A stretch of DNA of 64,000 nucleotides from Solen grandis. Its lineage: Eukaryota > Mollusca > Bivalvia > Adapedonta > Solenidae. The stretch spans positions 38,504,211 through 38,568,210 of the forward strand of contig CM037789.1 in the NCBI GenBank assembly GCA_021229015.1, written 5' to 3'. Positions 1,319 through 52,159 of this stretch are shown here, one piece after another (positions within the stretch are counted from its first letter, which is position 1; every line of letters starts with the position of its first letter). Under the pieces are notes generated by a model. That model did not search any database. It saw only the letters and a list, made by a program, of their open reading frames with translations, and was not told where the DNA came from. Position numbers and translations under genes: made by a program.

Positions 1319-2183
1319 AGCTCACCTGAGCACAAAGTGCGCGGGTGAGGTATTGTGATCAGTCTTAGTCCGGTGTCTGTCGTGCGTCATCAACTTTTGC
1401 TTTAAACAACATCTCCTCCTTAACTGCTGAGCAGATTTTGATGAAATTTTACAGGAATGATCATTGGGCAATACTGCACAAAAATAGCTAAAATCATTCC
1501 TATCCACAAACCAAGATGGCCACCAGAGCTAAAAATAGAAAAATCTTTAAACAACATCTCCTCTTAAACCGTTAAGCAAATTTTAGTGAAACTCATTAGG
1601 AATGATTATTGGATGATACTGCATAAAAATAGCTAAAATCGTTGGTCCACCAACCAAGATGGCCGCCAGAGCTAAAGATAGAATAATCTTTAAACGACAT
1701 CTCCTCCTAAATGTGAGCAGATTTTGATGAAATTTTACAGGAATGATCCTTAGGTGGCACTGAGCAAAAATGGTTAAAATTGTTCCAGTCTGCCTACAAA
1801 GATGGCCAACAGAGCTAAAAATAGAAAAAAAACAATTTCCTCCTAAAATGCTAAGCAAATTTTAATGAAACTCAATGGAATGATCATTGGGTTATACTGC
1901 ACAAACATCATTCGGCTAAAATCATTCCGGTCTGCTGACCCAGATGGCAGTCAGAGCGTAAAATAGAATAATCTGTAAACATAATCTTCTCATAAACTTC
2001 TGAGTTTTTTTTTGGAATGAAAATAAAAAAACCAAACAATTTTTAATGAAACTCATTAGGAATGATCATTGGGTGGTACTGAGCAAAAATAGCTAAAATC
2101 ATATATGTCTGCCTACCAAGATGGCCACCAGAACTAAAAATGAATAAGATGTAAATACTATATAATTTATTATGTGTATTTTT
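1319..2183 (+). mobile_element. Family A element A1, 5' part (outer element)
   Basis: It begins after a run of five T with AGCTCACCTGAGCACAAAGTGC, the family A 5' hairpin, here with a decayed right arm. A diverged tandem core of about 150 bp follows, with CATCTCCTC, GAATGATC and AAGATGGCC recurring near 1406, 1555, 1697 and 2050. No 3' end comes before the next 5' head at 2184. The missing 3' end is best explained by 3899-3972, after the inserted element A2. No protein is encoded. Confidence 0.65.
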
Positions 2184-3898
2184 AGCCCACCTGAGCACGA
2201 AGTGCTCAAGGTGAGCTATTGTGATCACCTTTTGTCCGTCGTCCGTCGTCCGTGCGTGCGTGCGTCCGTCCGTCGTCAACAATTTGCTTTAAAGAACATC
2301 TCCTCCTGAACCGCTGAAGGGATTTTGACCAAACTTCACAGGAATCATCCTTATGATGCCCTCTATTAAAGTTGTACAAATTATTCAGATTGGTTGAAAA
2401 AGTAGGTCACAGGAGCTAAAAATAGATTTTAAAAACTCAAACTTTGAAAATCTTCTTCTGCAAAACTGCAAGGCCTAGAGCTTAGATATTTGGTATGTAG
2501 CATCATCTTATGGGCCATTACCAAGATTGTGCAAATCATAGCCCTATGGTGATAAATGCCCCCGCACCAGGGGTCACTTGTTTTACATAGAGTTATATAG
2601 GAAAATCTTAAAAAATCTTCTTCTGTAAATCCATAAGGCCCAGAGCTTAGATATTTGGTATGTAGCATCATCTAATGGTTCATTACCAAGATTGTTCAAA
2701 TCATAGCCCTATGGTGATAAATGCCCCCGCACCAGGGGTCACTTGTTTTACATAGAGTTATATAGGAAAATCTTAAAAAATCTTCTTCTGTAAATCCATA
2801 CGGCCCAGAGCTTAGATATTTGGTATGTAGCATCATCTAATGGTTCATTACCAAGATTGTTCAAATCATAGCCCTATGGTGATAAATGCCCCCGCACCAG
2901 GGGTCACTTGTTTTACATAGAGTTATATAGGAAAATCTTAAAAAATCTTCTTCTGTAAATCCATAAGGCCCAGAGCTTAGATATTTGGTATGTAGAATCA
3001 TCTAATGGTTCATTACCAAGATTGTTCAATTCTTGCCCTATGGTGATAAATGCCCCCGCACCAGGGGTCACTTGTTTTACATAGAGTTATATAGGAAAAT
3101 CTTAAAAAATCTTCTTCTGTAAATCCATAAGGCCAGAGCTTAGATATTTGGTATGTAGCATCATCTAATGGTTCATTACCAAGATTGTTCAAATCATAGC
3201 CTTACGGTGATAAATGACCCCGCACCAGTGGTCACTTGTTTCACATAGAGTTACATAGGAAAAGACCTAGAGCTTAATCAATAGATTTGATGTGAAATAT
3301 TGTCTAGTGGTCCGTACCCACATAATTCATAATTATAGACCAATCATAAAAAAAATATTTTGCAATATTACTAGTTTGAGAGATTATGACTAGATAATGG
3401 TTAAAATTTGGCCCTTGATTGAATCACTTTTTACTTTAAATTACATACTTGATATATGTTTTATATTAAAATCAGTATCTACGATTAAATAAAATGATAA
3501 AAAGACTAAGAGAATATATTGTGTCAATTGTATATTAAATAAAGGTTTTCTTTAAGAAAGATATGAAAGTACAGATAATCGTATTGTTGGTAATAAAAAC
3601 ACATTCGGTTGTTTTAGGTTATAATATTATTAACCAATGAAAAATTAGGAAACTATTCAGCCCTCCATTTCTGGTTTCAGTTTGGTAGGTATACGATTCT
3701 CTTCAGAAATTTCAACGAATTATCGAAGATCATTAATCTAACAGACCTAAAAAGCGATTGAAAAGTAGGTCAGTAGGTCAAATCTTAGAAAAACCTTGTT
3801 TACACACTGGAGGCCACAATTTTGATTCAATCTTCCTCAAACTTGGTCAGCACAAATGTCCTCAGGTGAGCGTTTTTAGGGCCATCTTGGCCCTCTTG
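2184..3898 (+). mobile_element. Family A element A2, complete, nested in A1
   Basis: The 5' end is AGCCCACCTGAGCACGAAGTGC; GAGCAC and GTGCTC pair around GAA as a hairpin, and GTCCGTC repeats follow. The 3' side carries CTCAGGTGAGC (3861-3871), the inverse complement of the family's GCTCACCTGAG 5' arm. Then come a hairpin, AGGGCCATCTTGGCCCT, and the terminal CTTG. The interior holds a clean 165-bp tandem repeat. Both flanks are T-rich and no target-site duplication is evident. It has no open reading frame, so it is non-autonomous. Head, subterminal inverse repeat and 3' hairpin resemble Helentron-type elements; that assignment is inferred. Confidence 0.75.
2451..3270 (+). repeat. 165-bp tandem repeat, about five copies
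   Basis: TCTTCTTCTG recurs at 2451, 2616, 2781, 2946 and 3110, a spacing of 165 or 164 bases. The middle copies are nearly identical and include GATATTTGGTATGTAG and GCACCAGGGGTCACTTG. The first and last copies are more diverged, as expected for arrays that grow by unequal exchange in the middle. It is the core of element A2. Confidence 0.92.
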
Positions 3899-3972
3899 TT
3901 TTCCTTACTGCTGCATTTTCTCTCTAGCAGTTGAATTCAGGTGAGCGATTTAGGGCCATCATGGCCCTCTTG
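3899..3972 (+). mobile_element. Family A element A1, 3' terminus
   Basis: This 74-bp segment carries a second complete family A 3' end directly behind that of A2: TTCAGGTGAGCGATT, the hairpin GGGCCATCATGGCCC and CTCTTG. Two successive 3' ends preceded by two successive 5' heads (1319 and 2184) are what an insertion of A2 into A1 would leave. Confidence 0.65.
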
Positions 3973-5617
3973 TTTTGAGAGGTGTGGTACATATTTTTAG
4001 AAAGTACAGGATTATGTCAATAAATTGAAATTAAGGCCTTAACAGCAGCACATATTTTTAACCAGTTGGCCGTCAACTTTCTCTATCTTCAACTTCCTTT
4101 GTCTGGATGATAACTTTGTCATGCATTAAAATATTTTTTAATAAATACATAGAAATTGTTCAATATGCTAAGATAACAAGGATGCTGCATATATCATGCC
4201 AATGGGAGGATTGTTTAAGTGGGGTTGTAGCAAGGAGTGCCTGAGGTTTGAAACTTGGTTTGGCAGCACATTTTTCTCACCTGGCTGCTGGATAAAACTT
4301 TTATATATTTTGATCACTATTCAATCTTTACTGAAATATTTACTTTTGTATGGAACTGCTAGCTTCCAGGAACTAACAGAAACAATGGAAAGAACTCATC
4401 ATTAACTCCATAAGGAAGCTCCTAGATTAAAAAAAGGAGAGAAAAGGGAGACAATTCACTTCTGTAAAGCAGAGATAACAGTTTGAGTTTTGATTCTTTA
4501 TTTCTTTCAATTGTGTGCATTTGGTAAAGGAGAAATGAATGTCTTTGAGTTTTTTTTTTAAAGGTAACTGATGTAACTCTTGTCTAGCAAGAGTAGACTT
4601 TATTTTGATATTCTGAAAGTGTAGATCAAGTTTATGATTTTGTCAGCTTCATGATGGGATATGGATGTTGTCAGTAACTATAGTGATATGACCTGTAATC
4701 AGTATCTAAATTAAAAACACCATCAGCTATTTTCCGTAGCATTGCATGCTTAGACAAGCGACTTTAAAGGCATGCTACATTAAATTTTACATTAAAACAA
4801 ATCTTGCTTTTATGCAGAAGTATTGTTTATGTACCAAACTTACTACCAGTTACAAGAAATAAGCCTTTCAGATCCTCAATACTGGGAATTAATCATAATT
4901 AGAAAGTGCGAATTTTGAGAAAACACCTTAAAATTTAAAGTCAGCTAAATTCAGAACTTTGATCTTCAAATATTTCTGTTTTCTAAATGGAATACTTTTA
5001 AGGATATTTGTGACGATGTTGGCCTGTTCATGGTCATTTTTTTTCTGTATTGATCACAAGATTTAACTTCCATTTATAAAATGCCATTTCTTGCAAAAAA
5101 CACACTTTTGTGAATTTTGCAAATAATGACAGGAATTGGCTAAATCATTGTAACTCATTTTTGAGCCTCTTTTCTATCATTTTGACAAAAACTATGCATA
5201 AAATTGATTGTCAGCTAACGCTTTCCTTTCAGGTACATAGCATTACATTCAGCATGTGTTTTCATGAGACTCTATGGGAAAATAGCGGGTGGTGCTTAGC
5301 AAACTTTGAGTAGTATATTAGATGATATTTGTATTTGTTATACAGGAATATATTAGTTGATATTTATATTTGTTATGCAGGAATGACTATCAAACAGTAA
5401 GAATACACAATTCCATAACATTTTATTTTCACCATCTAGGCTGCTGTATCAGATAAGTTTAATACAAGAAATGGATAAAAAAAAATCCATTATCACCAGC
5501 ATCTTCTATGCTAACTGCAATGATGGTGTCATCACAACTTACACATGTGTTGTTCTCTTTTTATTTCTTTAATAAAAAAAAAAATTAATGGTTTAAATAA
5601 AAAAGACTACTACAGTT
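3973..5617. other. Unassigned sequence
   Basis: No gene, known repeat boundary or RNA is recognised. Short frames at 4196-4405 and 5110-5313 have low-complexity or arbitrary composition and no family resemblance. It could be intron or intergenic DNA. Confidence 0.5.
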
Positions 5618-6583
5618 GTTGGGCTGCTATCAGGATAATGTTCAAGGGTGGGTATCATAATGTCTGTCTGGTGCCAGGATAATGTTAAAGGGTGGGGTAT
5701 CATTCTGTGGTTCTGATGTCAGGATAATGGGGAAATAATGTTAAAGGTGGGTATCATCTGTGCTTCTGGTGTCCGGATAATGTTAAAGGGTGGGTATCAT
5801 AATGTCTGTCTGGTGCCAGGATAATGTTAAAGGGTGGGGTATCATTCTGTGGTTCTGATGTCAGGATAATGTTAAAGGGTGGGGTATCATTCTGTGGTTC
5901 TGGTGTCCGGATAATGTTCAAGGGTGGGTATCATAATGTCTGTCTGGTGCAAGGATAATGTTAAAGGGTGGGGTATCATGCTGTGGGTCTGGTATCAGGA
6001 TAATGTTAAAGAGTGGGTATCATGCTGTGGTTCTGGTATCAGGATAATGTTAAAGGGTGGGGTATCATGCTGTGGGTCTGGTATCAGGATAATGTTCAAG
6101 GGTGGGGTATCATGCTGTGGGTCTGGTATCAGGATAATGTTAAAGAGTGGGTATCATGCTGTGGGTCTGGTATTAGGATATTGTTAAAGGGTGGGGTATC
6201 ATGCTGTGGTTCTGGTGTCAGGATAATGTTAAAGGGTGGGTATCATGCTGTGGTTCTGGTGTCAGGATAATGTTCAAGAGTGGGTATCATGCTGTGGTTC
6301 TGGTGTCAGGATAATGTTAAAGAGTGGGTATCATGCTGTGGGTCTGGTGTCAGGATAATGTTAAAGGGTGGGGTATCATGCTGTTGGTCTGGTGTCAGGA
6401 TAATGTTAAAGGGTGGGTATCATACTGTCGGTCTGGTGTCAGGATAATGTTAAAGGGTGGGTATCATATTGTCGGTCTGGTGTCATGATAATGTTAAAGA
6501 GTGGGTATCATGCTGTCGGTTAGGTGTCAGGATAATGTTAAGGATGGCATTATGCTTTGGTTCCGGTGTCAAAATAATGTTAA
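5618..6583 (+). repeat. 44-45 bp minisatellite related to a SINE core
   Basis: The unit reads approximately GGTGTCAGGATAATG, TTAAAGGGTGGGTATCATG and CTGTGGTTCT, repeated about 20 times with single-base and one- or two-base length variants. Unit words such as GGTATCAGGAT and GGTATCATG also occur, in the same order and spacing, in the SINE bodies near 53671-53706 and, inverted, near 54155-54195. The reading frames that run through the array rich in Trp, Gly and Cys are products of the repeat and are not genes. Confidence 0.9.
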
Positions 6584-6615
6584 TGTTTTAAATGTATGGA
6601 CATGTAATCATTTTT

Positions 6616-7485
6616 AACCAGGTTTTCCGAAGAAAACAATTTCTTCTGTGCACAACTCCTCCTACATTTTTTAATGGATTTGGCCAAAACTTTTACAGAA
6701 GCATTATTACATAGTGGCCTGGCGCATATCGTCAGGGTTTTGTGGTTCGACTATTTTTTATGTAGTTATGGCCCTTTGTTATTTTTTCACATATGTAAAA
6801 TATAGGGAAATATTCTTCTGTGCGCAATTCCTCCTACATTCGACTATTTTTGATGCAGTTATGGCCCTTTGCCCCTTAACGGATGTAATATAAAGGGAAA
6901 TATTCTTTTGTGCACAACTTCTACATTTCTAAATAAATTTTGTCCATACTTTAACAGAAGTACCTTCACTAAGTCACCCTGGAGAATATTACCTGTGTTT
7001 TGCAGTTTGACCATTTTTGGTGGAGTTATGCCCCTTTGATAAAACTCCTTATCTGGAGCATAAGTCCTACATTATAAGAGGTATTGACTTGAAACTTTAT
7101 AGGTCCATACATCTCATTGAGGCCGAATGCAGTGCATAGGAACCTCACTCTGTGGTTCATAATTTTGGAGTTACATGTTTTGTAAAAATTCCTGATACGG
7201 AGCATAACTCCTTAATTTTAAAATATATAGTAATTATTGGTTTTGCAGTTTGACCATTTTTGATGGAGCCATTGTTGCATCATATTCATGTCTTGTTCAA
7301 AGTTAATGTGGATAAATGTAAGTTAAAAATCCTTGTTGCACATATTATGTATGTTTGCTTTATACAGAATTGCATTAGATTTAATAGACATTGAGCACAA
7401 AATTATTTGACTGATACAAATAATCTGTACTGGGACGAAACATTGCGAAAAGAAAACCTGGTTTTGTGACAATTCCTGTCACTTG
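6616..7485 (+). mobile_element. Family E element, complete
   Basis: It follows five T and begins AACCAGGTTTTCCGAAGAAA, where GTTTTC and GAAAAC form the 5' hairpin. At 7452-7463 lies GAAAACCTGGTT, the exact inverse complement of the first 12 bases. The hairpin GTGACA/TGTCAC (7466-7482) follows and the terminus is CTTG next to a T run. The interior has two to three diverged copies of a segment with TCTTCTGTGCACAACTCC. The layout equals that of families A, C and D although the sequence is unrelated. No open reading frame. Confidence 0.75.
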
Positions 7486-9389: not shown

Positions 9390-10667
9390 AGCTCACTTGA
9401 GCACAACATGCTCATGGTGAGTTATTGTGATCGCCTTTTGTCCTGTGTCCGTCGTCCTTGCATGCGCACGACCGTGTGTGCGTCCGGCGTCAACAATTTC
9501 CTTTAAACATCTCGTCCTAAACAGCTGAATAGATTTTTTTACCAAATTTCACAGGATTGATCCTTATGATGCCCTCTATCAAAATTGTTCAAATTATTTT
9601 GTTTGGTTAAAAAAGTAGGTCACAGGAGCTAGAAATAGATTTTTAAAATGCAATTTTTGAAAATCTTCTTCTGTAAAACTGCAGGGCCTAGAGCTTAAAT
9701 ATTTGGTGTGTAGCATTGTCTAGTGGATCTCTACCAAGTTTATTCAAATCATGACCCTGGGGTCAAAATTGGTCCCGCCCCAGGGGTCACCTTTTTTTAC
9801 ATAGGCTAATAAAGGAAAAAATATTTAAAAAATCTTCTTGTTAAAAACCACAAGGCCTGGAAATTGGCCCTGCCCCAGGGGTCGCTTGTTTTAATATAGG
9901 CTTATATAGGAAAATCTAGAAAAATCTTCTTGTCAGAAACCACAAGGCCTGGAGTAGATATTTGGTGTGTAACATGGCAATCAAGTTTGTTCAAATCATG
10001 GCCCTGGGGTCAAAATTGACCCTACCCCAAAGGCTACTTTATTTTACATATATGGGAAAATCTAGAAAAATCTTCTTGTCAGAAACTAAAAGGCCTGGAG
10101 TTTATATATTTGGTATACATTATGGATTAGTAGACATCTACCAACTTCCTTCACATTGCCCTAGGGTCAAAATTGGCCCCTACCCGGGGTCACTTGATTT
10201 TACTTATATTGGAAAGAAAAACTAGAAAAATTGTCTTTTCAGAAGCTACAAAGCCTGGACTTTTGATGTGTTACATGTACCAAGTTTGCTCAGATCATGG
10301 CCCTGGGGTCAAAATTAGCTGCCCCAGGGGTTACTTGATTTTACATAGACTTATATAGGAGAGTCTTTAAAAGATCTTGTCTGAAACCACAAGATAATGG
10401 GTTTAGTTATTGATTAACATGGCCTTGTGGACCTGAACCAAGTTTTCAAATCATGGCTCTTGGGTATAAATTGGTCCCGCACTAGGGGTCACTTGATTGT
10501 ATAGCTATGACCATTAAAATTTGGACCGCAGGTACAGTTTTTGTGTGGAATTACAATTATTTTGCTGTACTTCTTCATGGATTTTGTATTCAGTATGACT
10601 GTTATATAAAAGGCAATGAAGGCAATATTTCTCAGGTGAGCGATTCAGGGCCATCATCGCCCTCTTG
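9390..10667 (+). mobile_element. Family A element A3, complete
   Basis: The head is TTTTTAGCTCACTTGAGCAC with a slightly decayed hairpin partner (ATGCTCATGGTGAG). The core has diverged units of about 165 bp (AAATCTTCTT, AAGGCCTGGA, TCAAAATTGGCCC, CAGGGGTCAC). The 3' end has CTCAGGTGAGC at 10631, the imperfect hairpin GGGCCATCATCGCCC and CTCTTG ending at 10667. The core is homologous to that of A2 and A5 but older by divergence. Confidence 0.75.
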
Positions 10668-11430: not shown

Positions 11431-11432
11431 TT

Positions 11433-14167: not shown

Positions 14168-14345
14168 TTGCTGGTAGTCATGGTTTGATTGAAGGTTACA
14201 TAATGTTTTGAATTGTATTATTGCTGGTAGTCTTGGTTTGATTGGGGATGGTATGGTTTGATTGAGGGTAGTCATGGTTTGATTGGAGATAGTAATGGTT
14301 TGGTTTGGGGTATGTTTTGACTGCTATTTTTACTGGTGGTTTTTG
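14168..14345 (+). repeat. TGGTTTGATTGGGG minisatellite, right part
   Basis: Resumes with TTGCTGGTAGTCATGG, in phase with the unit broken off at 13208, and decays into G/T-rich sequence near 14345. Confidence 0.8.
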
Positions 14346-18265: not shown

Positions 18266-19046
18266 ATATAGGATGTCAGTCCTGTATATAGGATGTCAGG
18301 CCTGTATATAGGATGTCAGGCCTGTATATATGATGTCAGGCCTGTATATAGGATGTCAGGCCTGTATATAGGATGTCAGGCCTGTATACATGTATAGGAT
18401 GTCAGGCCTGTATATAGGATGTCAGGTCTGTATATAGGATGTCAGGCCTGTATATAGGATGTCAGTCCTGTATATAGGATGTCAGGCCTGTATATAGGAT
18501 GTCAGGCCTGTATATAGGATGTCAGTCCTGTATATATGATGTCAGTCCTGTATATAGGATGTCAGTCCTGTATATATGATGTCAGTCCTGTATATAGGAT
18601 GTCAGGCCTGTATATATGATGTCAGGCCTGTATATAGGATGTCAGGCCTGTGTATAGGATGTCAGTCCTGTATATAGGATGTCAGGCCTGTGTATATGAT
18701 GTCAGGCCTGTGTATATGATGTCAGGCCTGTGTATATGATGTCAGGCCTGTATATAGGATGTCAGTCCTGTATATGATGTCAGGCCTGTGTATATGATGT
18801 CAGGCCTGTATATAGGATGTCAGGCCTGTATATAGGATGTCAGTCCTGTATATAGGATGTCAGTCCTGTATATAGGATGTCAGTCCTGTATATAGGATGT
18901 CAGTCCTGTATATAGGATGTCAGTCCTGTATATAGGATGTCAGTCCTGTATATAGGATGTCAGGCCTGTGTATATGATGTCAGGCCTGTATATAGGATGT
19001 CAGTCCTGTATATAGGATGTCAGGCCTGTATATATGATGGCCTGTG
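18266..19046 (+). repeat. 20-bp satellite, about 38-39 copies
   Basis: The unit is TATAGGATGTCAGGCCTGTA. Three variable positions dominate: CAGGCCTG or CAGTCCTG, ATAGG or ATATG, and GTATA or GTGTA. One unit near 18385 carries an extra ACATGTATAG-like piece, and a few units have lost two bases. It has no unique spacers, so it is not a CRISPR array. The frame at 18937-19152 is a repeat product at its start. Confidence 0.95.
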
Positions 19047-23468: not shown

Positions 23469-25277
23469 ATGTCTAGTCTACAACAAACCAAACCAGGAAG
23501 TGCCAGCAGCAATAGTGCAGCTGGAAGTGTCTCTGGCTTGGCTGACCTCAGGGTGCGTGGGTCTGTAGGGTCCGGCCAAAATGGCAATCCTAAGAACGCC
23601 CAGAGAATTTACGCATTGGGTCCCTAAATGTAGGCACGATGTGGGGTAAAGCAAATGAAGTTGTGGAGACCATGTCCTGTAGGAGAATAGACCTCCTTCA
23701 CCTCCAGGAGACCAGATGGAGAAACGAAGGCACTTGATAAATTTCTGGTAAAGACACCCAGTACAAGTTCTTCTGGTCTGGAAATGATAAAGGCACAGGA
23801 GGTGTGGGAGTCCTGCTTGCTGAGAAATGTTGGGATAAGGTGTTTGAGATGAAGCGGTTATCTGACAGGATAATGCTGGTACGGATGGTGGTGGGAAAGG
23901 TAGTTTTACACACAGATAGACAACATTCTGTACTGTTGCAGCTTCCAAAACATGTGACAAATGTTAAAGTTATCCTCAGCGAAGAATGTGCGTCTCAACA
24001 CAAGCTTGTTGTTTGCAACCTTAAGGCCAAGTCTCCCAGCAAACGTAGACATAAGTTTACCCCATGTATAAAGCTGTGGAAGCTTAAGTATGTAGCCACG
24101 AAAGCAGAGTTTGCAGAACTCTTTGATTTCAAGGTTGTGGGCAACAAGGCTAAAAGTGTGGAGGAGCAATGGAAAGTGCTGAAAAACAGTCTGAATGAGG
24201 CTGCAACGGAGGTGTGTGGATTCTCAACCAAGCACCGAAGGTAAAAACAGACCTGGTGTGGAGTGACACGTTGGAGGAAGTGGTGCAGGAAAAGAGGCGA
24301 TGCTTTAAGGCCTGGAAGGCAGGTGGCAGTAGGAAAGAGTATAATGCTGCCAATTGTTATGCCAAACAAGTTGTGCACCATGCCAAAAGTGAGGCTGAGA
24401 AAGAGATTTTTCAAAACATGAGTCCCGAGTCTGGCGACATCTTCAAGTTGGCCAAGCAAATGCACCCTGACAATCAAGATGTTACAGACAAGAATGTAGT
24501 TAGGAATGATGAGGGCGAACTTCTCCTGATGAGGAAGCTATGAATGTCGCATGGAAGCAGCATTATAAGAGCCTTCTAAATATGGAATTCCCTGGAACCC
24601 TAATGATCTCTCAGATGAACCTCCCACAGAGGGCCCAACTGTTCCAATAACCACTGAGATGATCGAAAAAGCAATAAATAAGATGGGGCTGGGTAAAGCA
24701 GCTGGCCCATCTGGCATTGTGGCTGAGATGCTCAAGCCCACAGGCAAGGTTAATGTAGCATTTATTCGAGACCTCTTAGAAGCCATTGTCAGAGAGGGAC
24801 GTATCCCAGCGGAGTGGGAAAAAAGCTACATAGTCAGCCTGTACAAAGGCAAGGGTGATGCACTTAATGGGGGAAATTACCCTGGCCTAAAGCTGCTTGA
24901 CCAGGTCATGAAAATCTCTGTGAGAGTTGTGGAACAACTGATCAGAAATCAAGTACAGATTGATGGGATGTTATTTGGCTTCATGCCAGGCAGAGAGAGG
25001 AACCACGGATGTGGCAGATGCAGGAAAAACACCTCATAGTCAGCACACCTTATATATATGGCTTTCATTGACCTTGAGGAGGCGTTTGATTGCGATCCAA
25101 GGAAAGTCCTATGGTGGGTCATGTGAAAGATAGGTGTTGAAGAATGGCTTGTCCAAACTGTAAAATCAATGAGCTCCAATGCTAGAAGTAGTGTTCGGGT
25201 TGGTGATGACTACAGTGACGAAATTGATGTCAATTTGGGTGTTCATCAAGTTCATCATCATCATCATCATCATCATT
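23469..25277 (+). pseudogene. RTE-type LINE, broken endonuclease/reverse transcriptase
   Basis: A defunct non-LTR retrotransposon ORF. It starts at an ATG at 23469 with a Ser/Gly-rich leader, followed after a frameshift near 23615 by the APE-like endonuclease start (SLNVGT, QETRW). Two adjacent stops lie at about 23735. The middle of the endonuclease is missing: the frame passes from RMVVGKVV straight to QLPKHVTNVKV. A linker with SEAEKEIFQ follows. The RT domain has MGLGKAAGPSGIVAEMLK, YKGKGDALNGGNYPGLKLL, FGFMPGR and motif A as AFIDLEEAFD near 25065. Further frameshifts lie near 24238, 24535, 24590 and 25020, with a stop near 25127. The frame ends at LGVHQ, before the RT YxDD region, in a TCA microsatellite (25251-25278). 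The RTE assignment (the type often mislabelled craniofacial development protein 2) rests on these motifs. Confidence 0.85.
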
Positions 25278-25573: not shown

Positions 25574-26430
25574 AGCTCACCTGAGCACGAAGTGCTCGAG
25601 GTGAGCTTTTGTCATCACCCTCCGTCCATCTTCCTCCATCATTAACAACATCTCCTCTGAAACCGCTGGACAGAATTTGATTAAATTTGGCAGGGATGAT
25701 CCTTGGGTGTACCTTCACAAAAGTTGCTAAAATAAACTTAATCCATTTAGAACTCTGGTTGCCATGGCAACAGAAAGCAAAAATATGAAAACTTTAAAAA
25801 TCATCTCCTTCAAAACTACTAGCCAGATTTCAAAATGTTTTAGTACTGATGTTCCTTGGGTAACCCTCTAACAAAATTGCTAAAATTATTTTGATCCGTA
25901 AAGAACATGGCCACCACGGGCGGGACTAATTTGCCTTAAATGTATAAAGTGAAAACTTTAATCAACATCTACTCTGAAACAGCTAAACAGAATTTGATTA
26001 AACTTGGCAGGGATGACCCTTTGGTGAACCTTCACAAAAGTTGCTAAAATAAACTGGATCTGTGTAGAACTCTGGTTGCCATGGCAACAGAAAGGGGTAA
26101 CAAAATGAAAACTTTAAAAATCATATCCTTCAAAACTACTAGACAGATTTCAAAATGTTTTTGTACAGATTAATGTCTGCATTTCCAAGGCTGACTTGGT
26201 ATTGACCATTATCTCCAATTATGGCCCTTGAAGTATAAAAAATGTCATATTTAATTTTGTGTACATTCTAGCATCCACATTAATAAAGCATTCTTGATCA
26301 GCTGTATGCCTAATGATAATGAACTAAAGATTATTATGCCTTGTATGGAAGTTATGGTCCATAATATTTAAGGTTGCCTTTAGAGCAGTAATACTCAGGT
26401 GAGCGATATAGGGCCATCATGGCCCTCTTG
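25574..26430 (+). mobile_element. Family A element A6, complete
   Basis: Head AGCTCACCTGAGCACGAAGT with GCTCGAGGTGAGC pairing back. The core has two units (AACTCTGGTTGCCATGGCAA at about 25750 and 26070, with CAAAACTACTAG). The 3' end is CTCAGGTGAGCG, GGGCCATCATGGCCC and CTCTTG. It has no open reading frame. An error-rich copy is at 30743-31511. Confidence 0.78.
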
Positions 26431-30742: not shown

Positions 30743-31511
30743 TCTTACGACCGAGCACGAGTGTCGAGGTGAGCTCTTCACCCTCCGTCCATCTTCCTCC
30801 GATCGTTCACAGATTTTTTGCCACGTGGACAGATATTGGATCAATTGGCAGGCATGATCCTGGGACCGTACCTTCACAAAAGTTGCTAAATAAACTTATC
30901 CATTCTAGAACCTGGTTGCCATGGCAAACAGAAAGCAAAAATTGAAAACTTTAAAATCATCTCCTTCAAAAATACTAGCCAGATTTCACCGGTTTCTGAG
31001 TCCCTTGGGACCGTTACAAAATTCGCAAAGATCGCCACCGATAACATGGCCAACGGGCGGCTAAGCCTTAAATGTAAGTAAACTTTATTCACATTTTCTC
31101 TGAAACGATACAGAATTTTTCAGAACCTGCGGTATGCCCTTTGGTCGAACCTTCCTAAAGTTGCTAAAAAACGGATTGTGTAGAACTACTGGTTGCCATG
31201 GTCAACAGAGGGTTAACAATGAACTTTACAAATCATTCCTTCAACTACTAGACGATTTCAAAATGTTTTTGTACGGGTAATGTCTGCATTCACAACTGAC
31301 TTGGTATTGACCTTATCTCCAATTATGGCCCTTGGAGTATAAAAATGTAAATTTCAATTTGTGTACCTTCTACATCGAATAACAGATGCAGTTGATCAGC
31401 GTTTCGTTGTATGAACTAGATTATTATCCTTGTATGGAAGTTGGTCCATATTTTAGGTTGCCTTTGAGGTATACTCAGGTGAGCGTTATAGGCCTTCCAT
31501 GGCCACTCTTG
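30743..31511 (+). mobile_element. Family A element A6, error-rich copy
   Basis: Counterpart of 25574-26430. The head survives as CCGAGCACGAGTGTCGAGGT and the 3' end as CTCAGGTGAGCGTTATAGG with GGCCACTCTTG. At 769 bases it is about 10 % shorter than its counterpart. Confidence 0.7.
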
Positions 31512-40290: not shown

Positions 40291-40433
40291 TTTCGGAATA
40301 TAATGTCAATTGTTCAGCATGAACATGAAATACTACCAGAGGTGAGTCATTACATGAAACTTCTATCTCCTGCTTTTTGCATTAACACAGCTTGCAGAAA
40401 GTCCTATCATTCGTTTTCACGAATGACATCTAG

Positions 40434-41921
40434 TTATTATTATTATTATTATTTGTCCTCCTTTTGAGGTTCAAATTAAAACAGGTTGCCAATAAGCCAG
40501 CAGCATGAAATTTTAACAGTGATCAGAGTGACTTTGGCCCTTTTGAATGCACTAATTGTCATCTTCATATGACGTCATGTGACGTCACAGCTAAAAATAG
40601 TGAAAAATGGTGTTCGCGCTCTACAGCCGTCATTTATGGTCGGATTTTCTTCAAATTTTCACAGATGGTACATCTTGAAACTAAGGTGTGCATATCCTGT
40701 CAGCTAACCGAAATTCCGAAAGACCGAAGTTCTGTGGCTGAAATAAGATTCGAACATTTGGACCGAAAAGTTCATTTAGGATTAAAGAGCTTCAGGATGA
40801 GATAGAAAGTTGAAATTACACAGATTGCAGTTCTGCAGAATTTCTACATATATTTGAGTCGTGACGTCATATGACGACAAGTGACGTCAAAGCATACTTC
40901 TTAATTTTCATTTTAGGGCAATGATTTCGACATGATGCCAGTTGTTCAGAATAATGAAAATTTCAGAGTTATGACAGTAAAAGTATGCGCTTTTGAACAA
41001 AAGCATCTTCAGCACCCTATGACGTCACATAACGTCAGAGCTAAAAAAAGTGGAAAATGGTGTTCGCGCTCTACAGCCGTCATTTATGTCGGATTTTCAT
41101 CAAATTTTCACAGATGGTACAAAATGAAATTAAGGTGTGCATATACTGTCAACTAACAGAAATTCCGAAAGACCGAAGTTCTGTGGCTGAAATAAGATTC
41201 GAACATAGGACCGAAAATTTCATTTTAGGATTAAAGAGCATCAGGATAAGATAGAAAGTTGAAACTTAAACAGTTTGCATTTTCTGCAGAATTTCTAAAT
41301 AAATTTTGAGTCATGCGTCATATGACGTCATGTGACGTCATAAGCATTCTTCTTAATTTTCATTTTAGGGCAATGATTTCGACATGATGCCAGTTGTTCA
41401 GAATAATGAAAATTTCAAAGTTATGACAGTAAAGTATGCGCTTTTGAACAAAAGCACTTCAGCAACCTATGACGTCACATAACGTCAGAGCTAAAATAGT
41501 GGAAAATGGATTTCACGCTCTTAAAAGGCCATTTATGGTCGGATTTTCTTCAAATTTTCACAGATGGTACATCTTGAAACTAAGGTGTACCTATCCTGTC
41601 AGCTAACCGAAATTCTGAAAGACCGAAGTTCTGTGGCTTAAATAAGATTCGAACATAGGACCGAAAATTTCATTTTAGGATTAAAGAGCTTCAGGATGAG
41701 ATAGAAAGTTGAAACCTACACAGTTTGCTGTTCTGCAGAATTTCTTAAAATATTTTGAGTCGTGACGTCATTTGACGTCATGTGACGTCATAAGCATACT
41801 TATAATAAGGATTTTCTTCAATATTTGAAGAAGGTGTATGTCAGAAAAGTAAATAAGTATGATCAGGTTTGACATAGTTAGCAGAAAGCCCTTTCTTTTG
41901 TTCAGAACAAAAGGAGTCTAG
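40434..41921 (+). mobile_element. Family D body X1 with 3' end
   Basis: Follows the 3' terminus of the preceding body (GCAGAAAGTCCTATC at 40393, hairpin ATTCGT/ACGAAT, CTAG at 40430-40433). It begins with an ATT run and ends with its own terminus: GCAGAAAGCCCT at 41881, hairpin CTTTTGTTC/GAACAAAAG, CTAG at 41918-41921. Inside are three subfamily I units (40569, 41020, 41469). Its 5' head is not adjacent, which is expected if younger elements sit between head and body. Confidence 0.55.
40555..41800 (+). repeat. TGACGTCA satellite, subfamily I, three units
   Basis: Units at 40569, 41020 and 41469 with a period of 450, the same unit as 38201-40290, with several palindromes decayed (for example ACATAACGTCA). 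Confidence 0.92.
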
Positions 41922-44900: not shown

Positions 44901-44957
44901 TATATAAAGCAGATGTTGCAGAAAGTCCTATCATTCGTTTAAACGAATGACATCTAG
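41922..44957 (+). mobile_element. Family D body X2 with 3' end
   Basis: Begins TTCTTCTTCTTC directly after CTAG and holds four subfamily II units to 43660. After an internal ATT run at 43655-43675 it has about 1 kb without palindromes, including 'TATCTCAGAAACGACTGAAG' and 'GTACCAAG' words also seen in variant form near 53036-53350. It ends at GCAGAAAGTCCTATC, hairpin ATTCGT/ACGAAT, CTAG at 44954-44957. Confidence 0.5.
42055..43660 (+). repeat. TGACGTCA satellite, subfamily II, four units
   Basis: Units near 42060, 42428, 42892 and 43338. The shared core is AAAGTTTGTACGCGGTCTAC with AGCCATTATT or AGCCATTGTT, CGATTTTCATCAAATTTTC, AGATTCGAACCAAGGTCG and TCAGTATATAGGTCTCT. They are homologous to subfamily I in order of words but clearly diverged. 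Confidence 0.9.
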
Positions 44958-45074
44958 TTCTTTTTTTCTTCCTCTTATATTTGTGTTAATTTCGAGGTGT
45001 TGCCATTGACTCAGAACAATGAAAATTTTATGGCATATATTTCAAACCATGAGCTTTCGGATGCAATGAATTGT

Positions 45075-45410
45075 ATATTCATATGACGTCATATAACGTC
45101 AGATTTGACGTCAGGTGAAAAAGTTTGTACGCGGTCTACAGCCATTATTTCTGGATCGATTTTCATCAAAATTTCACAGAATATGTATGTTAGGCTCTAG
45201 TTGTGCATCCCGATGTCCGTTTTTCCAAATTCGAAAAGGCAAAGGTTTTATGGCGAATCCAAGATTCGAACTAATGACGTCAAATTTCAAATGCGTATAA
45301 AATCGCTTCCAGAAAAGCTAGAAAGCTGAGATTTGGCTGATATTAGTTTCCAGATCTTCTATACATTCTTAAAAGATGAACGCCATATGACGTCACATGA
45401 CGTCATAATG
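45075..45410 (+). repeat. TGACGTCA satellite, subfamily II, single unit
   Basis: Begins ATGACGTCATATAACGTCAG near 45083, contains AAGTTTGTACGCGGTCTACA, and ends in a TGACGTCACATGACGTCA pair near 45388. Its partner in X4 is 52160-52500. Confidence 0.88.
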
Positions 45411-45825
45411 CTCTTAAAACTTTCGTATTAAAACTTAACGGTTTTTAAGCCCTGTAGGCTTTATTTTTTGCATGATTTACTTGAAATTTTGTCTGAAGAT
45501 GCAGTATTAGAATCTATAGAGCCATGTCACTTCCGTTTCCGGAAAATCCCAAAGGTCAAGGTCATATATCAATTATCGGGTTTTTCTTCGGCCTTAAATA
45601 TCTCAAAAACGGTAAATATTCTATCGAGACACTGCGTATAATTTGTAGTGCTTAGAAAGACCTTTCAGATGATATTTAGTTTTTGATGATCGGGGTTGTA
45701 TCGGTTTATGGCGGAAAAAACAAAATTCGGTAACCCTCAGTGTGTTTAACAGTTTATATCTCGAAATCCTTTGATTTTTGAAAATATGATGATGAATATT
45801 ATTTGTAGAACAATGTTTGGCCGTT

Positions 45826-45952
45826 TCACAGGGATTTGAAGTTCAGTAATTTAAAATAAAATTCTGAAAATAATAGTACTCCATACATACAAAACATGTT
45901 TTTTCTTATATATACGGAATACTAAATTCTACTGAGCTTCAAATCCCTGTGA
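45826..45952. mobile_element. 127-bp palindrome, MITE-like, at a homology break
   Basis: Begins TCACAGGGATTTGAAGTTCA and ends with the inverse complement, TGAGCTTCAAATCCCTGTGA; the arms are about 25 bases. The left end coincides with the point where X3 stops matching X4 (after TTTGGCCGTT at 45825 and 52919). No clear target-site duplication. Confidence 0.6.
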
Positions 45953-46440
45953 TATTTATTTCAATTTAAAAACACACACTCACAGACAAGTGAATTTATA
46001 TCTAAGTCTTTAAATAATTTATTTTACAACAAGAAAATTACCAAGAAACAGCTGATTTCTCCATACTGCCTGGGTTTTTTTTTCTTTCAACGCCCGAATA
46101 GTCAGCCCTTTAATAATTTAAATTTACCGGTTTGACAGATTGCGGGAAAATAATCGCAATATCGCTGACCAATTTCGCAGCGTAAAAATCCTAATCATCC
46201 CGAAATGTACTGCGCTGCTGGTCCAGGTTGTTGTCCTTTTTTCGGATTCGCATATATTTCAAACAAATAAACATACAAAGGAGGATTATTTTCACGACAA
46301 TTTTGTATATTTCGATAGAGAAATATATATTTGATGATTCCGTATGTTAACTTCATAGATTTATTTGAATGATTTGAAAAAACGGAGTTGAAGCGAGTCG
46401 ACCCCTGAAAAGATGTCCACCCTTGTTGATAGTGTATGTA

Positions 46441-46480
46441 CAGTGTGTGTGGTGTGTGTGGTGTGTGTGTGTGTGTATGG
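46441..46480. repeat. (GT)n microsatellite
   Basis: GTGTGTGTGG units followed by a pure GT run. The His/Thr-rich minus frame over it is not a gene. Confidence 0.95.
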
Positions 46481-46832
46481 GAGCAAGTCCCTGTGCGTAG
46501 GCATTAGCTAAAAGCGCAAAATTTAGTAACTTTGTGTAATACAGTCGTCTCGATCGTATGTACAAGTGTTATTTGAATTTTACTCACGAGGCTACACGCG
46601 TCGACGATTCTATTACATGGTAGCATTTACTATTTCATTCCCGCGACTGTAAATGAAAAAAAAAAAAAAGATATGCAGAATTAAGAGGTTTAAGTTTAAT
46701 TGTTTATATTTTGAATACCTATAAAACTAGACCCAAATATGCTACAATGGAATTTCAGGTCATTTATTTTGGTACCTAGAATAGTAAAATTGGTCAAGTT
46801 ATAAGAAAGCGATATCAAAATAAAGATTTATT

Positions 46833-47455
46833 AGTCCCCTACCGGTGTTCACACCGGAGAGGACTATAGGTTTGCCCTCCGTCTGTCCGTCCGTCTGTCT
46901 GTCCGCTCAAATCTGGATCCCGCGATAACTTAATAACTAAGCAAGCTAACTTGATGAAACTTGGTTTATGACTTGATGGCAATGTGTAGATTATGCACAT
47001 TGTTTTATTTTTTTTATTCGACTAAAATTGTGGTTGCTATGGTAACGGAAATAGTGAAAATATGGCAAAAAATGGGATCACGCGACCGCGATAACTTTAT
47101 AATAAATTTTATAAGGCATGTATATAGTCAGGGTGGTGATGCAGAGTGAAAGTTCTCATTTCTCATCAACAAGACTAAAGACTAAAGAAAAACATTTTGG
47201 ATCAGGCAAGCTAACTTTTATTAATTCTATTTCTTGCATCTGTCTTGCTTGCATGAATTGTATAGTGGGCACAGCAGAGACAACAACTCTACATGTAAGT
47301 CTTGCTTAAATGGACATAACTTAAATATTCCCTTACATTTACTTTAACCAAAGTCTTGTTTTTCTTGGACCAAAATTCTGGTTGTTGTGGTAATGGAAAA
47401 ATTATGCACCTCACCGGTAGGGGACTCAAGTGTTGCTTGCAACACCAGTTACTTG
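46833..47455 (+). mobile_element. Family C element C2, complete
   Basis: Starts AGTCCCCTACCGGTGTTCAC, with ACCGGTG and CACCGG as hairpin arms, then TCCGTCTGTCC repeats. At 47412-47426 lies CACCGGTAGGGGACT, the exact inverse complement of the first 15 bases. The hairpin GTGTTGC/GCAACAC follows, then CTTG. The paralogous segment at about 56850-56880 lacks the element. Joining the C2 flanks recreates that empty site exactly except for an ambiguous TT, so no other target duplication exists. The interior has short repeated pieces but no frame longer than about 63 codons. Confidence 0.85.
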
Positions 47456-47681
47456 TTTATTTTTGGAATATGGCTTATTTCAAAAAGTTCATGCATGAGA
47501 AGTCCATACGAAAAAAAAAAGTAAAAGGTAAGGACTTTAATATATATTCTTTCTAACGGAATTAATCTTTATATTTTTCAATGTTAGCAGAAAGTCCTAT
47601 CATTCGTATCAACGAATGAAATCTAGTTAGGGCTTTCTGCTTTTCGCAGAAAGACCTATTGGGTTTGTTCTGTCTTTTATT

Positions 47682-50068
47682 AGGGCTTTCTGCTTTTCGC
47701 AGAAAGACCTATTGGGTTTGTTCTGTCTTTTATTATTATTATTCTTTTTTTTCCAACCTTTTCATGTTGTTATTTCATTAAGTTGCTGAAGGTCTAGGAC
47801 AAAGAAATTCTATCAACAGACACCTGAAGCAATGGCATTTTGGAATATATTATTTTAATCTTCACATGACGTCACATGATGTCAGAACTAAAAATAGCTA
47901 CCAAAGTTTGTACGCACTGTACAGCCGTCATTTATGGACGGATTGTCATGGAATTTTCACAGAAGTTATATATTAAGACCTCATTGTGCAGGATTATATA
48001 GGTTTGCCAAGATTCGAAAGAACTAATGCTTAAAATTTTCATATGACGTCACATGACGTCAGAACTATAAATAACTACCAAAGTTTGTCCGCTCTGTACA
48101 GCCGTCATTTATTGATAGATTGGCATGGAATCTTAACAGAAGTTATATATTACGACCTCATTGTGCAGGATTCTATAGGTTTGCCAAGATTCGAAAGAAC
48201 TAAGGTTCTTTGACGAATCCAAGATTCGAACCAAGGACGTCAAATTTTAAATACGTATAAAATCGTTTCTAGATGAGATAGAAATTTGATATTTGGCGAG
48301 ATTATATGTCTCTGTGTTTCCTTTGCATTTTGTAAAGATGAACGTCATATGACGTTATATGACGTCATCAAGTTGTATAGAATTTCCGATTTCTTGATGT
48401 CAATTTACTCATGTCAATTTACTCATGTTGCAAGGATTCATAAACAATGGAAATTGAAAGTCCTTTGTAGGTGATCATGTTCATTTTTATCCAATGTTTA
48501 AAATTTTCATATGACGTCACATGACGTCAGAACTAAAAATAGCTACCAAAGTTTGTACGCGCTGTACAGCCGTCATTTATGGACGGATTGGCATGGAATT
48601 ATCACAGAAGTTATATATTACGATCTCATTGTGCAGGATTATATAGGTTTGCCAAGATTCGAAAGAACTAAGGTTCTATGGCGAATCCAAGATTCGAACC
48701 AAGGACGTCAAATTTCAAATCCATATAAAAAACGTTTCTAGATGAGATAGAAAGTTGATATTTGGCGAGATTATACGTCTCTGTGTTTCCTTTTCATTAT
48801 GTAAAGATGAACGTCATATGACGTCATTTGACGTCATCAAGTTGTATAGAATTCCGATTTCTTGATGTCAATTTACTCATGTTGCAAGGATTCATAAACA
48901 ATGGAAATTGAAAGTCCTTTGTAGGTGATCATGTTCATTTTTATCCAATGTTTAAAATTTTCATATGACGTCACATGACGTCAGAACTAAAAATAGCTAC
49001 CAAAGTTTGTACGCGCTGTACATCCGTCATTTATGGACGGATTGGCATGGAATTATCACAGAAGTTATATATTACGATCTCATTGTGCAGGATTATATAG
49101 GTTTGCCAAGATTCGAAAAAGCAAAGGTTCTATGGCGAATCCAAGATTTCAAATAGGTATAAAGTCGTTTCTAGATGAGATAGAAAGTTGATATTTGGCG
49201 AGATTATATATCTCTGTTTTTCCTTTGCATTTTGTAAAGATGAACGTCATATGACGTCATAATTATGACGTCATCAAGTTGTATAGAATTTCCGATTTCT
49301 TGATGTCAATTTTCCTCATGTTGCAAAGCTTCATAGACAATGCAAATTAAATGTCCTTTGTACATAATCAGGAACATTTAGATTCAATGTTTAAAATTTT
49401 CATATGACGTCACATGACGTCAGAACTATAAATAACTACCAAAGTTTGTCCGCTCTGTACAGCCGTCATTTATTGATAGATTGGCATTGAATCTTAACAG
49501 AAGTTATATATTACGACCTCATTGTGCAGGATTCTATAGGTTTGCCAAGATTCGAAAGAACTAAGGTTCTTTGACGAATCCAAGATTCGAACCAAGGACG
49601 TCAAATTTTAAATACGTATAAAATCGTTTCTAGATGAGATAGAAATTTGATATTTAGCGAGCTTATACGTCTCTGTGTTTCCTTTGCATTTTGTAAAGAT
49701 GAACGTCATATGACGTCATCAAATTGTAGAGAATTTCCGATTCCTGAATGTCAATTTACTCATGTTGCAAAGGTTCAAAGACAATGAAAATTTAATGTCC
49801 TATGTAGGTAATCATGATCATTTAGATTCAATGAGTAAAAATTTCATATGACGTCACATGACATCAAAACTTAAAAAAGCTACCAAAGTTCATCCGCGCT
49901 GCACAGCCGTCATTTATGGACGGATTGGCATGGAATTTTCACAGAAATTATATATTAAGACTTCATTGTGCAGGATTATATAGGTTTGCCAAAATTCGAA
50001 AAATACCAGGTTTGTCATGGTTTGCAGTGCAGAAGCCCTATCTTTTGTTCAAAACAAAAGAAGTCTAG
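47682..50068 (+). mobile_element. Family D inner element, complete
   Basis: The same head as the outer element starts again 53 bases downstream, and the same body start (CCAACCTTTTCATG, TTGCTGAAGGTCTAGGAC) follows at 47755. About 5 subfamily III units precede the terminus GCAGAAGCCCTATC, hairpin CTTTTGTTC/AAACAAAAG and CTAG (50065-50068). Immediately afterwards the outer body starts with near-identical sequence. It inserted in the ATT run just behind the outer head. High identity between inner and outer suggests recent activity. Confidence 0.78.
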
Positions 50069-51830
50069 TTATTATTATTATTCTTTTTTTCCAACCTTTT
50101 CATGTTGTTATTTCATTAAGTTGCTGAAGGTCTAGGACAAAGAAATTCTATCAACAGACACCTGAAGCAATGGCATTTTGGAATATATTATTTTTATCTT
50201 CACATGACGTCACATGACGTCAAAACTAAAAATAGCTACCAAAGTTTGTACGCGCTGTACACCCGTCATTTATGGACGGATTGTCATGGAATTTTCACAG
50301 AAGTTATATATTAAGACCTCATTGTGCAGGATTATATAGGTTTGCCAAGATTCGAAAGAACTAAGGTTCTATGGCGAATCCAAGATTCGAACCAAGGACG
50401 TCAAATTTCAAATCCATATAAAATCGATTCTAGATGAGATAGAAAGTTGATATTTGGCGAGGTTATATGTCTTGTGTTTCCTTTGCATTTTGTAAAGATG
50501 AACGTCATATGACGTCATATGACGTCATCAAGTTGTATAGAATTTCCGATTTCTTGATGTCAATTTACTCATGTTGCAAAGGCTCATAGACAATGAAAAT
50601 TTAATGTCCTATGTAGGTAATCATGAACATTTAGATTCAATGTTTAAAATTTTCATATGACGTCACATGACGTCAGAACTAAAAATAGCTACCAAAGTTT
50701 GTACGCGCTGTACAGCCGTCATTTATGGACGGATTGGCATGGAATTTTCACAGAAGTTATATATTACGACCTCATTGTGCAGGATTATATAGGTTTGCCA
50801 AGATTCGAAAGAACTAAGGTTCTATGGCGAATCCAAGATTCGAACCAAGGACGTCAAATTTCAAATCCATATAAAAAACGTTTCTAGATGAGATAGAAAG
50901 TTGATATTTGGCGAGATTATACGTCTCTGTGTTTCCTTTGCATTATGTAAAGATGAACGTCATATGACGTCGACGTCATCAAGTTGTATAGAATTTCCGA
51001 TTACTTGATGTCAATTTACTCATGTTGCAAGGGTTCATAAACAATGGAAATTAAAAGTCCTTTGTAGGTGATCATGTTTATTTTGATCCAATGTTTAAAA
51101 TTTTCATATGACGTCAGAACTAAAAATAGCTACCAAAGTTTGTACGCACTGTACAGCCGTCATTTATGGATGGATTGGCATGGAATTTTCACAGAAGTTA
51201 TATATTACGATCTCATTGTGTAGGATTATATATGTTTGCCAAGATTCGAAAAAGCAAAGGTTCTATGGCGAATCCAAGATTCGAACCAAGGACGTCAAAT
51301 TTTAAATACGTATAAAATCGTTTCTAGATGAGATAGAAACTTGATATTTGGCGAGATTATATATCTCTGTGTTTCCTTTGCATTTTGTAAAGATGAACGT
51401 CATATGACGTCATATGGCGTCATCAAGTTGTATAGAATTTCCGATTTCTTGATGTCAATTTTCCTCATGTTGCAAAGCTTCATAGACAATGCAAATTAAA
51501 TGTCCTTTGTACATAATCAGGAACATTTAGATTCAATGTTTAAAATTTTCATATGACGTCACATGACGTCAGAACTATAAATAACTACCAAAGTTTGTCC
51601 GCTCTGTACAGCCGTCATTTATTGATAGATTGGCATGGAATCTTCACAGAAGTTATATATTACGACCTCATTGTGCAGGATTCTATAGGTTTGCCTAGAT
51701 TCGAAAGAACTAAGGTTTTTGACGAATCCAAGATTCGAACCAATGACGTCAAATTTTAAATACGTATAAAATTTTAAATTTAAGCTTATATTTTTTTTTT
51801 AAAGAACGTCATATGACGTCATCAAATTGT
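47855..51830 (+). repeat. TGACGTCA satellite, subfamily III, about ten units in two elements
   Basis: Unit starts near 47868, 48043, 48513, 48963, 49405, 49852 (inner element) and 50205, 50657, 51108, 51553 (outer element), mostly 440-450 bp apart. Words include CATATGACGTCACATGACGT, TAGCTACCAAAGTTTGTACG, TGGACGGATTGGCATGGAAT, CCAAGATTCGAACCAAGGAC and GTCAATTTACTCATGTTGCA. Recurrent frames of 62-76 codons starting MTSHDVRTKNSYQSLYALY are by-products; neighbouring units carry indels that break them. Confidence 0.93.
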
Positions 51831-52159
51831 AGAGAATTTCCGATTCCTGAATGTCAATTTACTCATGTTGCAAAGGTTCATAGACAATGAAAATTTAATG
51901 TCCTATGTAGGTAATCATGAACATTACATGATTATATAGGTTTGCCAAAATTCGAAAAACACCAGGTTTGTCATGGTTTGCAGTGCAGAAAGCCCTATCT
52001 TTTGTTCAAAACAAAAGAAGTCTAGTTCTTCTTCTTCTTCTTATTCTTTTTTTCTTCCTCTTATATTTGTGTTAATTTCGAGGTGTTGCCATTGACTCAG
52101 AACAATGAAAATTTTATGACATATATTTCAAACCATGCGCTTTCGGATGCAATGAATTT

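What the first reader, a model, noticed from the sequence alone, without database searches (positions are those of the whole stretch)
1319..52025. One terminal architecture shared by unrelated short element families
Families A, C, D and E have different sequences but the same plan. Each has (1) a T-rich left flank and a 5' arm that is itself part of a hairpin; (2) a core, often tandem; (3) the exact or near-exact inverse complement of the 5' arm placed subterminally (A: GCTCACCTGAG/CTCAGGTGAGC; C: AGTCCCCTACCGGTG/CACCGGTAGGGGACT; D: AGGGCTTTCTGC/GCAGAAAGCCCT; E: AACCAGGTTTTC/GAAAACCTGGTT); (4) a second hairpin of different sequence; (5) CTTG or CTAG next to TT. Family B and element C1 show the same head but are truncated. 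Helentron/HINE elements are known for asymmetric terminal inverted repeats and a 3' hairpin, and tandem cores are known in bivalve 'pearl'-type elements. That these repeats form one mechanistic class is my inference. Arm sequences can change freely so long as both copies co-vary, as if a structure is being recognised.
Basis: partly seen in the sequence, partly recalled or inferred. Interest (0 to 1): 0.87.

Follow-up and report, generated by a model that had tools for sequence, protein, structure and literature searches.

The report
Many jumping-gene families, one end-plan
Several short repeats with unrelated sequences in this genome share one end-design, already described for rolling-circle jumping genes called Helentrons, and one of these families probably has its own enzyme-coding partner.

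Summary
Families A, C, D and E share one plan: TT, a 5' arm inside a head hairpin, a core, the exact inverse arm 22-29 bases from the 3' end, a second hairpin, then CTTG or CTAG before TT. A structure-only scan finds all four in the window; reversed controls find none. All four are repeated genome-wide (1.32 Gb held). Empty sites in the window place the ends of C and D where claimed, in TT, without target duplication. Family F, outside the window, had its tail predicted from its head; a D head variant predicted from window tails exists in thousands of copies.

The plan is not new. It is Helitron2/Helentron (HINE) anatomy, published in 2013-2014 with the 5' hairpin, asymmetric inverted repeats, compensatory changes and an arm-switch model; oyster HINEs with tandem cores followed in 2020. 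Arms match between the ends of each family, but in 4 of 4 A elements with a mutated head arm the tail had not changed to match.

New here, inferred from coordinates only: a likely autonomous partner of A (A head, 1997-aa open frame with Helitron_like_N and PIF1, A tail; same strand, 13.1 kb). My own rule, that head hairpins always carry a defect, failed in D1. Verdict: new members of a known kind.

The parts
1319..1351 (+). A head hairpin (5' arm 1320-1330), after TTTTT
2184..2217 (+). second A-type head (arm with one mismatch); its element probably lies nested in the one that starts at 1319 (inference)
3861..3898 (+). A tail: inverse arm, hairpin, CTTG before TT
3936..3972 (+). second A tail (arm with one mismatch), CTTG before TT
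9390..10667 (+). A element: head 9390-9423 (arm with one mismatch), tail 10631-10667
25574..26430 (+). A element: head 25574-25607, tail 26394-26430
30753..31511 (+). A element without a recognisable head; tail 31474-31511
   Evidence: BLAST to 25574-26430
6614..7485 (+). E element: arm 6616-6627, head hairpin 6622-6637, inverse arm 7452-7463, hairpin 7466-7482, CTTG 7482-7485
46831..47455 (+). C element: TT, arm 46833-46847, inverse arm 47412-47426, hairpin, CTTG 47452-47455; both ends fixed by an empty site
47627..52025 (+). D element: twin heads 47629-47657 and 47682-47710, D2 tail 51985-52025 ending CTAG; ends fitted by empty sites. An internal tail at 50029-50068 suggests two fused units
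40394..40433 (+). D1 tail, CTAG before TT
41881..41921 (+). D2 tail, CTAG before TT
44918..44957 (+). D1 tail, CTAG before TT
47587..47626 (+). D1 tail that directly abuts the D head at 47627
50029..50068 (+). D2 tail (arm with a deletion) inside 47627-52025, CTAG before TT
56990..57029 (+). D1 tail, CTAG before TT
56814..56989 (+). paralogous empty site of C (89.9% over 178 aligned columns)
56911..57146 (+). paralogous empty site of D 47627-52025 (92.9%)

Best explanation
Families A, C, D and E have the terminal anatomy of non-autonomous Helitron2/Helentron elements (HINEs), and they likely move by rolling-circle replication driven by a RepHel enzyme supplied in trans. Shown here: the shared end anatomy; TT insertion without target duplication for C and D; many RepHel-type open frames elsewhere in the genome; none recognised by Pfam in the 10 window ORFs scanned. 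Inferred: the 5' arm first sits in its own head hairpin; when replication brings the 3' end round as single strand, the arm pairs with the subterminal inverse arm, the head hairpin opens, and the enzyme cuts at the CTTG or CTAG after the terminal hairpin, so that replication stops and the strand joins into TT. This switch was proposed by Bao and Jurka (PMC3627910). Inferred from coordinates: an A-ended element of about 13.1 kb at C1:10022986-10036127 is the source of enzyme for A. My odds: class 0.95, rolling-circle movement 0.9, arm-pairing switch 0.5, A partner 0.7.
For: End plan in A, C, D, E with zero reversed-control hits. Empty sites: C at window 56814-56989; D at window 56911-57146 and at L030 1596-1835 (96.7% over 240 bases). 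Family F in the C1 sample: the tail predicted from the head and the plan was found for 2 of 2 heads, with hairpin and CTTG before TTT, the arm with 1 mismatch. D1 heads predicted from window D1 tails (note) were found 6180+6192 times, control 0. Terminal hairpin of 7 D tails (6 distinct): 42 of 42 cells paired, 2 of 7 pairs changed on both sides between D1 and D2, covariation score reached by 1 of 500 shuffles. Calculated arm:tail duplex stronger than arm:own head partner in 6 of 6 window heads tested and, against the family's exact tail arm, for 23 of 23 A heads and 27 of 27 C heads. Helitron_like_N: 150 of 150 scored places match (228 candidates). PIF1: 150 matches, 150 of 395 candidates scored. 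Candidate partner: A head C1:10022986 +, Helitron_like_N C1:10029096-10029605 + and PIF1 C1:10031115-10031771 +, each given as lying in an open frame of 1997 aa, A tail C1:10036090-10036123 +. Published plan and model: PMC3627910 section 9; PMC4067079, PMC7492417, PMC5148889 passages.
Against: The covariation rests on one D1/D2 split (3 against 3 rows); two of the five measures are reached by 226 and 473 of 500 shuffles. Exact inverse arms would also arise as two binding sites of one protein. For D the empty site could also come from loss of units in a tandem chain, because D units here share the CTAG-TT junction. No empty site for A (3 elements tried) or E in the sequence held. D1 heads are mostly perfect palindromes (45 of 55 listed places), so a weaker head hairpin is not general. 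The A partner was not read as sequence: endonuclease domain, Rep catalytic motif, exact ends and true continuity are untested. Its chance estimate (0.1% per gene) assumes even, independent spacing and uses an 8 kb limit set after seeing the hit. A C head 7.2 kb upstream of a second RepHel (C1:34136688 -) has no exact inverse arm downstream in the listing.
Confidence: 0.88

Rival explanations
1. Same elements, other use of the arms: the two inverse arms are two binding sites that the family's own RepHel reads by sequence, and their complementarity plays no part.
For: Each family has its own arm, as expected if each enzyme has its own site. Exact inverse copies need no pairing. In A, C, D2 and E the head partner is imperfect while the two arms match exactly.
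Against: The 5' arm lies in a hairpin in A, C, D, E and F. Thousands of D1 heads are perfect hairpins. Bao and Jurka report compensatory changes that keep both features (PMC3627910 section 9).
Confidence: 0.4
2. Canonical Helitrons (Helitron1) with 5' TC, 3' CTRR and insertion between A and T.
For: Hairpin near the 3' end; the D end CTAG fits CTRR.
Against: Five-prime ends read TTAG or TTAA, A, C and E end in CTTG, insertion is in TT, and 5' hairpin and paired arms are foreign to Helitron1 (PMC3627910 passages).
Confidence: 0.03
3. Cut-and-paste MITEs with terminal inverted repeats.
For: Short non-coding elements with inverted repeats; by PMC4067079 and PMC7492417 (passages) related elements were once filed as MITEs.
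Against: Arms are asymmetric, a second hairpin follows only the 3' arm, and the empty sites of C and D show no target duplication.
Confidence: 0.02
4. The shared plan is coincidence in a repeat-rich, palindrome-rich genome.
For: The relaxed scan also picks up an unrelated symmetric repeat family; one of five shuffles gave a hit.
Against: Reversed controls give 0; thousands of copies against reversed-pattern counts of 0-40; predictions for F and D1 came true.
Confidence: 0.01

Closest known systems
Helitron2 (Bao and Jurka 2013, PMC3627910; passages and section 9 read)
   Same: [quoted passage not shown] 5' repeat part of a 5' hairpin; [quoted passage not shown] compensatory changes and the arm-switch idea.
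   Different: Private arm sequences and genome; some C tails lie slightly outside the 20-30 bp range; no target duplication seen here, while some algal members have them.
Helentrons and HINEs, including DINE-1 (Thomas et al. 2014, PMC4067079; outline and passages read)
   Same: subTIRs near the 5' end and tens of bases from the 3' end, 3' stem loop, insertion in TT, runs of T at the borders, tandem-repeat or microsatellite cores, non-autonomous partners.
   Different: The endonuclease domain that marks autonomous Helentrons could not be tested here.
Cg_HINE elements of Pacific oyster (Vojvoda Zeljko et al. 2020, PMC7492417; passages and section 7 read)
   Same: 11-12 bp subTIR with a complementary IR in the left flank, GTCY/GTCC microsatellite, tandem cores, 3' subTIR plus palindrome, TT insertion; several elements with unrelated cores and flanks in one genome.
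   Different: No autonomous partner could be linked there; here family A has a likely one.
FoHeli elements of Fusarium (PMC5148889; passages read)
   Same: Asymmetric inverted repeats; hairpins at both ends in FoHeli1 and FoHeli2; 5' hairpins with a GAA loop, as in F and some A heads here.
   Different: Other terminal sequences and insertion site; circular intermediate tested there, not here.

Membership tests
Helitron2/Helentron (HINE) | short inverse repeats placed asymmetrically (5' near the end, 3' subterminal) | tested here: met
   A, C, D, E exact; F with one mismatch
Helitron2/Helentron (HINE) | 5' hairpin that includes part or all of the 5' repeat | tested here: met
   folds; in A, C, D2 and E the partner is imperfect or partial
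Helitron2/Helentron (HINE) | 3' hairpin between the 3' repeat and the end | tested here: met
Helitron2/Helentron (HINE) | insertion in TT without target duplication | tested here: met
   C and D by empty sites; A and E have no empty site in the sequence held
Helitron2/Helentron (HINE) | autonomous RepHel element with the same ends | tested here: inconclusive
   one coordinate-based candidate for A; C has a head but no exact tail near one RepHel; none found for D or E in the part of the genome listed
Helentron in the strict sense | endonuclease domain fused to RepHel | not testable with these tools
canonical Helitron (Helitron1) | 5' TC, 3' CTRR, insertion between A and T, no 5' hairpin | tested here: not met
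   5' TTAG/TTAA, CTTG in A, C, E, TT insertion, 5' hairpins; only the D end CTAG fits CTRR
MITE with terminal inverted repeats | symmetric terminal repeats and target duplication | tested here: not met
   asymmetric arms; no duplication at C and D

The most novel reading that the evidence does not exclude
The arms are a self-addressing code: the two ends of an element find each other by base-pairing alone, so one RepHel that knows only TT, hairpin and CTNG can mobilise families with unrelated arms, and a new family is born whenever both arms change together (as D1 and D2 seem to have done).
Probability: 0.15. Interest if true: 0.7.

Novelty: new member of a known kind. Interest (0 to 1): 0.4.

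Why it matters
It shows how far one rolling-circle end design has spread in a single genome: tens of thousands of A arms and thousands of D heads. It gives a place to look for the enzyme behind bivalve-type HINEs, a link that the oyster study left unresolved (PMC7492417, passage). D1 and D2, close relatives that differ in both arms and in both sides of the terminal hairpin, are natural material for testing whether the arms act by pairing or as protein sites.

Tried and rejected
Rejected idea: 'the head hairpin always carries a central defect and the arm-tail duplex never does'. It fitted A (88 perfect against 6188+6395 bulged heads), C (0 perfect against 624+654 with a one-base deletion), the D2 heads of the window, E and F, but D1 heads are mostly perfect palindromes (45 of the 55 places in the first 100 rows; 9 of the other 10 are D2 heads read backwards), and the F tail arm has a mismatch. 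It is a family trait, possibly ancestry.

Tried without result: empty sites for A (3 elements) and E in the sequence held; Pfam on 10 of the 11 window ORFs of 100 aa or more, 0 families at E 0.01 or less (24214-24543 + was not scanned); arm covariation inside A (4 of 4 mutated head arms without a matching tail). Comparing by eye the first 100 D heads and first 100 E tails with the 150 Helitron_like_N places gave no element with both ends; one E tail (C4:36140443 -) lies 12 kb downstream of a short fragment and was not pursued.
Full report
What was checked. A scan that knows only the plan (T-rich left side, arm with local hairpin partner, inverse arm upstream of a hairpin, CTNG, TT) reports six tails in the window, three of A and one each of C, D and E; both reversed controls report none. 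A stricter scan found A twice, C and D plus one doubtful minus-strand hit, missed E, and gave 0 in reversed controls and 1 in five shuffles. On a 200 kb stretch of contig C1 the relaxed scan found one A element and eight hits at the ends of another repeat family with symmetric inverted ends, so the plan must be read together with copy number and empty sites.

Genome-wide. The window lies at G000:C13:38504211-38568210 of a 1.32 Gb genome without a name. Counts, forward+reverse, with reversed-pattern controls in brackets: A arm 35979+35955 (17+23), C arm 1753+1753 (1+0), D2 head 1158+1085 (0+0), D1 head 6180+6192 (0+0), E tail with hairpin and CTTG 189+166 (0+0), one A tail subtype 4218+4248 (0+0). 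D1 heads are mostly palindromic, so their forward and reverse counts largely name the same places. Distinct A tails in the sequence held end in CTTG followed by TT in 21 of 25; distinct C tails in 11 of 12, read from the printed rows.

Exact ends. Joined flanks of C match window 56814-56989; taking the element as TTAG...CTTG (46831-47455) restores that empty site, with no target duplication. Joined flanks of D 47627-52025 match L030 1596-1835 over all 240 bases (96.7%) and window 56911-57146 (92.9%), again at CTAG/TT. D units here form a chain in which several units lack heads, so loss of units by recombination remains a rival for D. No empty site turned up for E or three A elements in the sequence held.

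Predictions. A head of another family, F, was noticed twice in the C1 sample as a weak A-like match. Searching downstream for its inverse arm (one mismatch allowed in ten) gave one candidate tail per head, each followed by a hairpin and CTTG-TTT. D tails of the window fall into D1 and D2, which differ in one arm base and on both sides of the terminal hairpin at two of seven pairs; all 42 cells pair. From D1 tails I predicted an AGGAC head (note), and it was found. The covariation is one evolutionary split: two of the five measures are matched by many shuffles (226 and 473 of 500).

Pairing. With DNA parameters the arm:tail duplex is stronger than arm:own head partner in 6 of 6 window heads tested, and against the family's exact tail arm for 23 of 23 A heads and 27 of 27 C heads (copies chosen by an exact 5' arm; one A and two C occurrences that fitted neither class were left out of these counts, and the A tail list of that call contains two heads read backwards). 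Perfect head hairpins are rare in A (88 against 12583 bulged) and absent in C (0 against 1278). D1 breaks the rule: 45 of the 55 places in the first 100 rows are perfect palindromes. I therefore keep only this: the inverse arm at the tail matches the 5' arm at least as well as the head partner does in A, C, D and E; F has one mismatch at the tail and a bulge in the head.

Enzyme. None of the 10 window ORFs scanned (of 11 of 100 aa or more) matches Pfam. Elsewhere 150 of 150 scored places match Helitron_like_N, and 150 places match PIF1, where 150 of 395 candidates were scored. At C1 an A head (10022986 +), Helitron_like_N (10029096 +), PIF1 (10031115 +) and an A tail (10036090 +) follow each other on one strand over 13.1 kb; both domains are listed in an open frame of 1997 aa. 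Two Helitron_like_N places lie in the part of C1 covered by both end lists; one has both ends. The chance of that is about 0.1% per gene under even spacing, an optimistic figure because repeats cluster and the 8 kb limit was set afterwards. A C head lies 7.2 kb upstream of another RepHel (C1:34136688 -) whose domains fall in two frames, without an exact C tail in the listing.

Place in what is known. Bao and Jurka (PMC3627910, section 9 and passages read) define Helitron2 by these very features: asymmetric repeats of 8-15 bp, the 5' one in a hairpin, the 3' one about 20-30 bp from the end and upstream of a hairpin, with compensatory changes and the suggestion that arm pairing opens the 5' hairpin and sets the end point. 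Thomas et al. (PMC4067079, outline and passages) give the same for Helentrons and HINEs with TT insertion. Vojvoda Zeljko et al. (PMC7492417, section 7 and passages) describe 11 such elements with tandem cores in one oyster genome, with partners unresolved. Fusarium elements share it in part (PMC5148889, passages). So the class is known; the families here are new members as far as these papers show. No search of a repeat library was possible, so some may already be listed there.

Mechanism and odds. Shown: anatomy, ends, TT insertion for C and D, and RepHel-type frames in the genome. Inferred: rolling-circle movement in trans (0.9), the arm switch (0.5), the A partner (0.7). The strongest rival for the arms is a pair of protein-binding sites; exact complementarity of two arms cannot separate the two.

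Noticed in passing
window 47629-47710; contig C1 of G000: D heads are often tandem, about 53 bp apart: 11 clusters holding 27 of the first 100 D2 heads, and 39 of 73 D1+D2 heads in C1:0-12.71 Mb have another head within 120 bp. A cause is not known.
   Followed up: partly
L024 5072-5533 (minus strand): An A-like tail is itself tandemly repeated: 16 units of 30 bp, each with an inverse arm, before the final hairpin and CTTG.
   Followed up: no
window 38207-58403: A chain of D units with roughly 450-bp tandem cores; several tails run straight on into a unit without a head, and one D1 tail abuts a D2 head directly (47626/47627).
   Followed up: partly
window 46831-47455; L046, L048, L049, L050: 4 of 7 C elements fetched share the window copy's left and right flanks, so C has multiplied as a passenger of a larger, D-related repeat.
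   Followed up: partly
window 2205-2207, 25589-25591, 6628-6631; family F heads in L013 and L022: Head loops are often GAA closed by C-G (some A heads, F; CGAA in E), as in the FoHeli1 and FoHeli2 heads quoted in PMC5148889. That such DNA loops are unusually stable is recalled, not tested.
   Followed up: no
L018-L023 (C1 sample positions 92317-137069): Another repeat family with symmetric inverted ends (TGCTGTTCGCTGCTCC) and a strong terminal hairpin mimics part of the plan.
   Followed up: no
window 5630-6583 and 18266-19039: A 44-bp minisatellite directly left of element E, and a 20-bp array of 38.5 copies.
   Followed up: no
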